Below are positions 62,719 through 64,000 of a stretch of 64,000 nucleotides of DNA, piece after piece. Position 1 is the stretch's first letter. Each line of letters opens with the position of its first letter. Source of the DNA: Tenacibaculum pacificus. GTDB taxonomy: Bacteria; Bacteroidota; Bacteroidia; Flavobacteriales; Flavobacteriaceae. The DNA lies in NCBI RefSeq assembly GCF_027941775.1, contig NZ_CP115917.1, positions 157,001 to 221,000 of the forward strand, read 5' to 3'. The notes under the pieces were generated by a model, which was not told the DNA's origin, made no database searches, and saw nothing but the letters and a program-made list of their open reading frames with translations. The position numbers and the translations under genes were made by a program.

Positions 62719-64000
62719 ATGCAATATAATCATCAAGATATAGAAAAGAAATGGCAACAGTTTTGGGCAGATAACCAAACATTTAAAGCCAGTAATGAAT
62801 CAGAGAAACCTAAATATTATGTGTTAGATATGTTTCCTTATCCTTCAGGAGCGGGTTTACATGTTGGGCATCCTTTAGGATATATTGCATCTGATATTTA
62901 TGCACGTTATAAGCGTCATAAAGGATTTAACGTATTGCATCCGCAAGGATATGATTCTTTTGGTTTACCAGCAGAACAATACGCAATTCAAACAGGTCAG
63001 CATCCAGCAATTACTACCGAAACAAACATTAATACGTACCGTCGTCAGTTAGATACTATTGGTTTTTCTTTCGATTGGTCTCGTGAGGTGAGAACTTCTA
63101 GTCCTGAATATTATAAATGGACACAGTGGATTTTTATCCAATTATTTAATTCTTGGTATAATAAAGATTCTGATAAAGCAGAAGATGTTTCAACTTTAAT
63201 TTCAGTATTTGAAACGGAAGGAAATGCATCTGTAAATGCAGTTTCAGAAGAAGATATCGCAGTTTTTTCTGCGGAACAATGGAATGGTTTTTCTGATAAA
63301 GAAAAAGAAGCTATTTTATTACAATATCGTTTAACTTATTTATCTGATACCGAAGTAAACTGGTGTCCAGGATTAGGAACGGTATTGGCAAATGATGAAA
63401 TTATAAACGGAGTATCAGAACGTGGTGCGCATCCTGTAATTCGTAAGAAAATGACCCAATGGTCTATGCGAATTTCAGCATATTCACAACGTTTGTTAGA
63501 TGGTTTAGAAAACATCGATTGGCCACAACCTTTAAAAGATAGCCAAACAAATTGGATTGGAAGAAGCGAAGGAGCAATGGTAACTTTTAAAGTTGATGCT
63601 TTAGAAGTGGAAGCTGGTGTAAAATTATCGTTCAAAGAATTAGAGGCATTAAAAGAAATGCGTTTAAACTTATCAAAGGCAGAAGAAGTTCTTTGGAATG
63701 AATTAAAAAATAAAAAAGGAGCATCAAAATTTAGAAAAAAATATACTATTGGTACATTTTTAGTAGATTATGTATGTTTAGCAAAAAATATTGTTGTCGA
63801 ATTTTCTGGTAAAGAAGACGAAGCAGCAAGAACTACGTATTTTACAAACGAAGGACTTCATATAGTTCGTTTTACAAATGAAGAGGTTTTAGAAAATGTT
63901 TTAGGTGTTGTATCTAAAATTAATAATACCATTCAATTTGCAAAACCTCTTGAAAAATCAACAGTTGAGGTAGCAGAAACAGTAGTACAAAACGATTATA
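62719..64000 (+). CDS. leuS: Leucyl-tRNA synthetase with an inserted DUF559 endonuclease-like domain (5' part, runs off the right edge)
   Basis: 427 residues are visible. Class I synthetase charging tRNA-Leu. The N-terminus is typical: [17 protein letters not shown], the HIGH motif as [10 protein letters not shown] (residues 46-55) and [20 protein letters not shown]. The Bacteroidota-type insert [20 protein letters not shown] near residue 155 is present, then [16 protein letters not shown] and [16 protein letters not shown]. After [17 protein letters not shown] (about residue 283), where the editing (CP1) domain should go on to a TTRPDT motif, residues about 305-403 are a different domain: [62 protein letters not shown]. 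This matches DUF559. The frame stays open and codon use is like the rest. The catalytic core with KMSKS lies beyond the window. Confidence 0.92.

What the first reader, a model, noticed from the sequence alone, without database searches (positions are those of the whole stretch)
63628..63930. DUF559 nuclease-like domain spliced into the editing domain of leucyl-tRNA synthetase
Seen: after the first strand of the CP1 editing domain ([17 protein letters not shown]) LeuRS is interrupted by about 100 residues with the full DUF559 pattern, i.e. S-x-A-E-x-x-L-W-x-x-L, F-R-x-x-x-x-I-G-x-F-x-V-D-Y, V-V-E-F-x-G, and V-R-F-x-N-x-E-V-L. DUF559 has a restriction-endonuclease (Vsr/PD-(D/E)XK) fold. The first catalytic Asp (VDY, residue 350) and Glu361 are kept, but the usual E-L-D-G-G-Q-H is E-F-S-G-K-E-D, so the Asp and His are lost. 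A nuclease-fold insert in an editing domain could bind the tRNA acceptor end, or be a degenerate domain kept as a spacer. I have a vague memory of DUF559 in some Bacteroidota LeuRS entries but cannot confirm it. I know of no functional study.
Basis: partly seen in the sequence, partly recalled or inferred. Interest (0 to 1): 0.78.

Follow-up and report, generated by a model that had tools for sequence, protein, structure and literature searches.

The report
Dead mobile nuclease inside leucyl-tRNA synthetase
An essential protein-building enzyme in this marine bacterium carries what looks like the worn-out remains of a tiny mobile DNA element, whose intact relatives, edged by hairpin repeats, sit in frame inside many housekeeping genes of related bacteria.

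Summary
Confirmed: the window's LeuRS carries a DUF559 domain in its CP1 editing domain (residues 311-405), with two of four catalytic residues gone. Best explanation: a fossil mobile element. Intact relatives (D-E-D-H in 44/44 LeuRS copies) occupy the same LeuRS loop and, in frame, about 20 other gene families. Intact LeuRS copies are bounded by inverted REP-like C-rich hairpins at both ends in 40/44; copies in other genes 8/16 and, class-wide, 25/40; free-standing copies only 2/11; random blocks 0/1300 and 0/800. Similar repeats are dispersed in the genomes; all 11 of 199 genomes with five or more copies of one subtype carry DUF559. The layout resembles REP/RAYT units with a Vsr-fold nuclease; movement by DUF559 is inferred, not shown. 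Insert presence changes 17 times on the LeuRS tree. The window's copy belongs to one dead clade without hairpins (0/52), yet under purifying selection (dN/dS 0.15): ballast or domesticated RNA-binding module, undecided. No paper I could search links DUF559 to LeuRS or palindromic repeats.

The parts
62719..63600 (+). LeuRS, N-terminal part up to the CP1 loop (residues 1-294); the gene goes on beyond the window, 1105 residues in all
   Evidence: ORF; Pfam tRNA-synt_1; TIGR00396 leuS_bact 869 bits, cut-off 548
63601..63996 (+). whole in-frame insertion relative to insert-free LeuRS (about residues 295-426; ends approximate because no terminal repeats are left)
   Evidence: comparison with insert-free relatives, e.g. 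L166, L177
63649..63933 (+). DUF559 domain (Vsr-like nuclease fold), residues 311-405, catalytically incomplete
   Evidence: PF04480; AlphaFold and Foldseek on the 97% identical Tenacibaculum dicentrarchi copy
63766..63768 (+). Asp350, first catalytic Asp, kept
   Evidence: D in 52/52 low-scoring (window-class plus L045) and 44/44 canonical LeuRS copies
63799..63801 (+). Glu361, catalytic Glu, kept
   Evidence: E in 50/52 low-scoring LeuRS copies
63805..63807 (+). Ser363 in place of the second catalytic Asp; the catalytic His further on is missing
   Evidence: D 44/44 and H 44/44 in canonical LeuRS copies; S 44/52 and no His in 51/52 low-scoring LeuRS copies; the one with both is the broken canonical frame L045

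Best explanation
The insert is the degenerate, mostly vertically inherited remnant of a small mobile element. The intact element (418, 504 and 593 bp in three measured copies) carries one gene, a DUF559/Vsr-fold nuclease, between two inverted REP-like C-rich hairpins; inside genes its whole length is open in the host's frame, so it is translated as an extra domain. Such modules have entered the same LeuRS CP1 loop repeatedly, and about 20 other gene families. Shown: fold, hairpin ends (clearest in LeuRS), dispersed repeats, many hosts, patchy presence, different insert lineages at one site in close relatives. Inferred: that DUF559 cuts DNA at these hairpins or at empty alleles and so moves itself and the repeats (homing by repair, or a REP/RAYT-like reaction). 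In the window's lineage the nuclease died, the hairpins decayed and the domain stayed, kept by selection on folding or as an RNA-binding module.
For: Inward-facing hairpins at both ends: 50/71 distinct canonical loci (LeuRS 40/44, other genes 8/16, free-standing 2/11) vs 0/1300 random blocks; 25/40 class-level in-gene loci vs 0/800; 5 of 8 plasmid DUF559 loci of other phyla, no control run. Inverted repeats of 42 bp, 100% and 97.6% alike, bound two copies in one genome. Dispersed copies of one repeat subtype, up to 43 per genome, reversed pattern 0 in 10 genomes; in 199 genomes 212 matches against 5 for the reversed pattern (my sum). In the two genomes checked most copies lie away from DUF559 and some form 94-134 bp facing pairs without a gene. 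All 11 genomes with 5 or more copies carry DUF559, 63 of 199 overall, Fisher p 1.7e-6. Hosts. Catalytic tetrad kept in canonical copies, lost in the window class. Host mixing in the DUF559 tree; 17 presence changes on the LeuRS tree, 14 forced by starred branches; Leeuwenhoekiella LeuRS 5.5-9.4% apart with inserts 42-44% apart; a Polaribacter-group pair closer in the insert than in the host. Own genome: both DUF559 copies have lost the second Asp, no match to any of four repeat patterns, no such hairpin in the window.
Against: No movement was caught in the act, no target-site duplication was found, no nuclease activity was tested. Free-standing copies have both oriented hairpins in only 2 of 11, and 8 of 71 canonical loci have neither. 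Orientation is clear in LeuRS (wrong-way pair 1/44) but not elsewhere: in the class set 15 of 40 also score the wrong way round. 8 of 36 genomes with at least one repeat match have no strong DUF559. Random control blocks are mostly coding, while free-standing copies are intergenic. Insert and host distances correlate (Mantel r 0.58 in both classes), so much inheritance is vertical. Loci are related, so counts are not independent; the trees are quick ones with many open forks. Something else may move the repeats.
Confidence: 0.72

Rival explanations
1. The dead DUF559 is a domesticated RNA-binding domain of LeuRS: having lost cleavage, it contacts the acceptor arm of tRNA-Leu (or another RNA) next to the editing site, as Vsr-fold RAP domains bind RNA without cutting it.
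For: dN/dS 0.154 for the dead domain vs 0.414 for its linkers, 24 disjoint pairs. Twelve basic positions conserved in at least 95% of 50 dead copies, five of them not so in canonical copies (K320, K330, K333, K341, K365). RAP-domain precedent: FASTKD4 binds RNA with an inactive Vsr-like site (PMC11879112, passages); mitoribosomal chains among the Foldseek hits (that these are RAP proteins is recalled).
Against: Dispensable: 23 of 58 genomes of the genus group have LeuRS without DUF559 (my reading); 14 of 19 such LeuRS fetched have the plain 23-residue spacing. Canonical copies show the same dN/dS (0.153), so constraint may be folding alone. Seven acidic positions are as conserved as the basic ones. 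No docking was possible: the full LeuRS model was poor (pTM 0.32).
Confidence: 0.3
2. Tolerated ballast: the insert has no function; once in the loop it must fold, so selection only removes misfolding variants.
For: Same dN/dS as canonical copies; many relatives lack it; length-variable, fast linkers.
Against: New conserved basic residues specific to the dead class; wide retention across Tenacibaculum, Polaribacter and Lutibacter relatives.
Confidence: 0.42
3. DUF559 is a passenger: the C-rich hairpin repeats are moved by another enzyme, such as a Y1 (RAYT-like) transposase, and DUF559 merely lies between two of them.
For: Y1 transposase matches occur in 9 of 12 genomes searched, the window's own being weak and broken; free-standing DUF559 copies seldom show both hairpins (2/11).
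Against: None in G023 (33 copies), G027 (9) and G176 (5). Of 11 Y1 loci examined (30 matches were listed) none has the oriented hairpins at both ends, against 50/71 for DUF559. The measured elements leave no room for another gene.
Confidence: 0.17
4. An intein or intron, i.e. the insert is spliced out.
For: One genome has a DUF559 between intein-like stretches (L047; intein profile E 2e-6 but below Pfam's cut-off).
Against: No intein domain reported in the LeuRS, RecG or MetH hosts scanned; the insert is one domain plus short linkers.
Confidence: 0.02
5. An ordinary LeuRS-specific accessory domain, acquired once and inherited.
For: The window-class inserts form one clade.
Against: Same module in about 20 other gene families and in a second LeuRS position; many presence changes.
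Confidence: 0.05

Closest known systems
REP / RAYT elements (REP-associated tyrosine transposases; PMC2817692, abstract read)
   Same: One gene between two inverted palindromic repeats; dispersed copies of the repeat, also as facing pairs without a gene; repeat abundance goes with gene presence
   Different: The protein is a DUF559/Vsr-fold nuclease, not a Y1 transposase; the repeats start with a C-run guide (e.g. CCCCNAACCC) rather than the GTAG or CGTC tags named in the title of PMC3733652 (listing only); many copies lie in frame inside genes
EDxHD/Vsr-like homing endonucleases (I-Bth0305I, PDB 3r3p)
   Same: Fold and distant sequence relation (E 4e-5; Foldseek E 3e-3); same-site presence/absence among relatives
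   Different: No intron or intein around it in LeuRS, RecG or MetH; palindromic ends; many different host genes
Stand-alone DUF559 proteins (NGO0050, PDB 3hrl; Caulobacter VsrA, PMC12907096)
   Same: Same domain; 3hrl is the best solved match (E 4.7e-28)
   Different: 3hrl is titled endonuclease-like; VsrA is hypothesised to be a mismatch-repair protein in the one passage seen, which does not mention mobility or repeats
Rickettsia palindromic elements (recalled)
   Same: Palindromic repeats inserted in frame in protein genes
   Different: They carry no gene (recalled)
RAP domains (FASTKD4, PMC11879112, passages read)
   Same: Vsr fold with an inactive site; possible parallel for the dead LeuRS insert
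   Different: Eukaryotic RNA-binding proteins; no mobility (recalled)

Membership tests
DUF559 (PF04480) | profile score over the curated cut-off | tested here: met
   62.1 bits vs 20.6; 67.1 bits in the genome scan
DUF559 (PF04480) | catalytic D, E-x-D, H set | tested here: not met
   window copy keeps D350 and E361, lacks the second D and the H; canonical LeuRS copies keep all four, 44/44
Vsr-like homing endonuclease | Vsr/PD-(D/E)XK fold | tested here: met
   3hrl, 3r3p, on the 97% identical copy L158
Vsr-like homing endonuclease | gains, losses and different lineages at one conserved site in close relatives | tested here: met
   for the LeuRS CP1 site as a whole; quick trees
Vsr-like homing endonuclease | cleaves the insert-free allele | not testable with these tools
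   needs a bench assay
REP/RAYT element | gene flanked by two inverted palindromic repeats | tested here: inconclusive
   met by canonical LeuRS copies (40/44), half of other in-gene copies (8/16; 25/40), 2/11 free-standing; not met by the window copy
REP/RAYT element | encodes a Y1 tyrosine transposase | tested here: not met
   the only domain found in the inserts scanned is DUF559; so not filed as RAYT
Intein | HINT/intein splicing domain around the nuclease | tested here: not met
   absent in LeuRS and RecG; only L047 has a weak, below-cut-off intein match
Bacterial LeuRS | equivalog profile over its cut-off | tested here: met
   TIGR00396 869 bits vs 548.4

The most novel reading that the evidence does not exclude
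DUF559 nucleases define an unrecognised class of bacterial mobile element: a Vsr-fold nuclease mobilises itself and the widespread C-rich palindromic repeats (the CCCC-NAACCC hairpins) in several phyla, and its element is built to be read through in frame, so that it can live inside essential genes such as aminoacyl-tRNA synthetases and occasionally be domesticated there as a dead extra domain.
Probability: 0.45. Interest if true: 0.92.

Novelty: new variant of a known kind. Interest (0 to 1): 0.8.

Why it matters
It would give dispersed bacterial palindromic repeats a candidate mobiliser other than RAYT transposases, and a function to a large domain of unknown function. It would explain odd DUF559 domains in LeuRS, IleRS, MetH, RecG and others as mobile inserts rather than enzyme domains, and it offers a natural series from intact to dead to possibly domesticated insert in one essential enzyme. 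All of this is directly testable with small proteins and short DNA substrates.

Tried and rejected
Whole-LeuRS AlphaFold model (A1, 31 sequences): pTM 0.32, not used for placement. A plain inverted-repeat score on 120-bp flanks separated canonical copies only in part: 29 of 76 reached the 99th percentile of 568 control blocks, low-scoring copies 4 of 66; the two ends often carry different variants of the hairpin. The oriented-hairpin test was designed after seeing the repeats; the class-level set is its check on new loci. A breakdown made while checking this report showed that the signal is strongest in LeuRS and weak in free-standing copies; I lowered the best explanation from 0.74 to 0.72 and the novel case from 0.5 to 0.45 for that, and raised the passenger rival from 0.15 to 0.17. 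Within-genome copies did not give a clean recent transposition with sharp ends, except tandem copies and the 42-bp repeats. The second repeat pattern (CTCTCC type) was found in 18 of 199 genomes and not used for the correlation. In one search the DUF559-positive set is 63 genomes with best E of about 1e-21 or lower, taken by hand; G000, G002, G113 (weaker matches) and fragment-only genomes such as G110 and G013 were counted as negative; one overlapping repeat row of G144 was left out (19 of 20). In one search the window class was reduced to 14 rows, and L047, L049 and duplicate loci were left out. LeuRS frames broken on draft contigs (L045, L111) were described, not mended; L111 was too short for the LeuRS tree. 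The intein rival and assembly error were rejected.

Literature searches (open-licence PMC only) listed no paper whose title or abstract links DUF559 with LeuRS, in-frame insertion or palindromic repeats. Of the 14 papers that hold the word DUF559 I opened one, at one passage; the rest I saw as listing only. Subscription papers were not searchable.

Full report
What is in the window. Pfam finds DUF559 at residues 311-405 (window 63649-63933), 62 bits against a cut-off of 20.6, between the catalytic N-part and the editing-domain profile that starts at residue 416. NCBIfam calls the protein leuS_bact (869 bits). Compared with insert-free LeuRS, the spacing between WIGRS and FTTRPD grows from 23 to 153 residues. 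D350 and E361 are kept, S363 replaces the second Asp and the His is missing.

A second copy changed the question. A whole-genome scan found one other DUF559 in this genome, in frame inside RecG between helicase motifs II and III (motif names recalled). Among 199 genomes of the same family, 89 have a DUF559 match, and many lie in long frames. Pfam places scanned examples inside LeuRS, RecG and the B12-dependent methionine synthase (between cap and B12 domains), fused to the end of histidinol dehydrogenase, and to the start of HemD and of a PLP enzyme; one lies between intein-like stretches whose profile scores are below Pfam's cut-off. A class-wide scan (122 of 247 genomes with a match) and 40 long-frame loci picked for varied length add a second LeuRS position (by eye from flanks), IleRS, the MetH activation domain, RecJ, acetyl-CoA synthetase, HsdR, SpoIIE-type phosphatase, methylmalonyl-CoA mutase, a UvrD-family helicase, a CoA-transferase, an M23 peptidase, N-formylglutamate amidohydrolase (end fusion), a pseudouridine synthase (start fusion), three kinds of restriction-modification protein and a TsaB-like protein. 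Of these 40, 19 were scanned with Pfam, 11 were assigned to LeuRS by phmmer, 8 by eye from flanks like those of a scanned sibling, and 2 were left unassigned. In the family set, four of the six HemD and four of the six RecG examples were also assigned by eye.

The ends are inverted hairpins, most clearly in LeuRS. At DNA level the canonical inserts start and end with REP-like repeats: a C-run guide followed by a C/T-rich hairpin, facing inward, for example ATTCCCCCTAGCCCCCAAAGGGGGAAC on the left and, reverse-complemented, AATCCCCCTAACCCCCGAAGGGGGAAC on the right in Leeuwenhoekiella polynyae (L035, L085). The peptide stretches beside the domain (ILSFPKGEG, VPPSGARG and so on) are these repeats, translated. 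With an oriented-hairpin detector, 50 of 71 distinct canonical loci have both ends (57 left, 56 right), against 0 of 1300 random blocks from the same loci. Broken down: LeuRS 40 of 44, other genes 8 of 16, free-standing copies 2 of 11. Low-scoring LeuRS copies have 1 of 53, and that one is L045, a canonical copy with a broken frame, so the window's class has 0 of 52. On class-level loci fetched afterwards, all in long frames, the counts are 25 of 40 against 0 of 800; there the orientation is less clean, 15 of 40 also scoring the wrong way round, against 1 of 44 in LeuRS. Two copies in one genome are bounded by 42-bp inverted repeats, 100% and 97.6% alike. Of 8 DUF559 loci examined on plasmids of other phyla (8 of 30 rows listed), 5 have both ends (Picosynechococcus, Pseudanabaena, Synechocystis, Sphingomonas, Deinococcus), two one end and one none, with no control run.

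The repeats are dispersed. One subtype occurs up to 43 times in a genome, with none for the reversed control pattern in 10 genomes. In 199 family genomes 36 have at least one match, 212 matches in all against 5 for the reversed pattern (my sums); 28 of the 36 carry a strong DUF559 (63 of 199 overall), 8 do not; all 11 genomes with five or more copies carry one (Fisher p 1.7e-6; relatedness not corrected, nearly always one genome per genus). In the two genomes checked most copies lie away from any DUF559 (1 of 15 within 400 bp in G125, 2 of 19 in G144), and both show facing pairs of 94-134 bp with no gene, like REPINs. Y1 transposases do not explain all of them: three repeat-bearing genomes (33, 9 and 5 copies) have no Y1 match, and none of 11 Y1 loci examined, of 30 listed, has the hairpins at both ends.

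Mobility by pattern. In a quick tree of 130 domains, with few columns and 62 of 127 inner branches open, hosts mix: one starred clade (98) holds MetH, SpoIIE, M23 and acetyl-CoA synthetase inserts. On a quick LeuRS tree of 135 rows (51 low-scoring, 44 canonical, 40 without), presence of an insert changes 17 times, 14 forced by starred branches (two long branches meet in it). Leeuwenhoekiella species whose LeuRS differ by 5.5-9.4% carry inserts that differ by 42-44%, and others of the genus have none. Six canonical inserts of the Polaribacter group belong to one starred domain clade but are scattered among window-class LeuRS, and one pair is less diverged in the insert (dN 0.012, dS 0.32) than in the host (0.068, 0.72). 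Against this, insert and host distances do correlate (Mantel r 0.58 in both classes), so vertical descent is also common.

The window's copy is a fossil, but not a random one. Its class is one clade with full support (14 rows). The canonical tetrad is complete in 44 of 44 LeuRS copies and each of its residues in 71-72 of 72 others; among 52 low-scoring LeuRS copies the second Asp is Ser in 44 and the His is missing in 51 (the exception is L045). The genome has no match to any of four repeat patterns, and the 64-kb window has no such hairpin; the RecG copy has also lost the second Asp (EVNGKYH). Yet the dead domain evolves under constraint: dN/dS 0.154 over 24 disjoint pairs, LeuRS flanks 0.099, linkers 0.414; canonical copies (10 pairs) give 0.153, 0.086 and 0.417. 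Twelve basic and seven acidic positions are at least 95% conserved in 50 dead copies, five of the basic ones unlike canonical copies. In the genus group, LeuRS has the insert in 33 of 58 genomes, lacks DUF559 in 23, and two could not be scored (my reading), so it is dispensable; 14 of 19 insert-free LeuRS fetched have the plain spacing, 5 have short extra stretches.

Structure. The insert alone folds confidently (pLDDT 84, pTM 0.75; predicted from the Tenacibaculum dicentrarchi copy, 97% identical over the domain). Its best solved relatives are the DUF559 protein 3hrl and, more distantly, the homing endonuclease I-Bth0305I. The full LeuRS model was too poor to place the domain.

Mechanism. Best supported: a one-gene element with palindromic ends that enters genes in frame; the DUF559 nuclease is the only protein it has room for and is the likely driver, either by cutting insert-free alleles, with repair copying the element (homing), or by acting on the hairpins as RAYT does on REPs. 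The architecture, host range and patchiness are shown; cutting and movement are inferred. For the dead LeuRS copy I favour tolerated ballast slightly over a domesticated RNA-binding role; Vsr-fold RAP domains show that an inactive Vsr fold can bind RNA (PMC11879112, passages read).

Known or new. The architecture is that of REP/RAYT units (PMC2817692, abstract read) with a different enzyme, so it is not a RAYT; the fold is that of EDxHD homing endonucleases without intron or intein. DUF559 has been described as Vsr-like in Caulobacter (PMC12907096, one passage). My searches of open-licence papers listed no link of DUF559 to LeuRS, in-frame insertion or palindromic repeats (mostly titles and abstracts seen). 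I rate it a new variant of a known kind, with a little under an even chance that it is a new class.

Noticed in passing
G000:C1:1164156-1164464 (L004:2824-5352): Second DUF559 of the window's genome, in frame inside RecG; second catalytic Asp replaced by Asn, long branch, no hairpins.
   Followed up: yes
L047:3366-5516 (minus strand), genome G125: A DUF559-like nuclease between intein-like stretches (intein and HINT profiles significant but below Pfam's cut-offs): perhaps the same fold used as a homing endonuclease in an intein.
   Followed up: partly
L121, L152, L133, L135, L167, L179 (LeuRS CP1 loop): LeuRS without DUF559 that carry short in-frame peptides looking like other translated interspersed repeats (e.g. 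MLKQVQHDKSERHSELDSES, VTSSAVEKSQ) at the same spot; the loop seems a hotspot for insertions.
   Followed up: partly
L265 (G050:C21:62500-72123): Cluster of 11 or more copies of the repeat between repeated genes; one gene type begins with a DUF559-like N-terminus (by eye) joined to another domain.
   Followed up: partly
L020, L023, L027 and other free-standing DUF559 genes: Free-standing copies often have palindromes of another build or the other orientation, missed by my detector; they may belong to a different repeat subfamily.
   Followed up: partly
L267 (G144:C6:204200-205200): A facing pair of repeats without a gene; the right one appears to run in frame into the start of what looks like hisH (by eye).
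   Followed up: no
L245-L252 (plasmids of cyanobacteria, Alphaproteobacteria, Deinococcus): DUF559 genes of other phyla, 5 of 8 with the same type of inverted hairpins at both ends.
   Followed up: partly
LeuRS residues about 777-831 (L003): A second length-variable stretch in LeuRS, missing in many relatives of the genus group (alignment gaps).
   Followed up: no
L045 (G112:C53): LeuRS frame broken inside a canonical DUF559 insert on a draft contig; assembly error or real, not decided.
   Followed up: no
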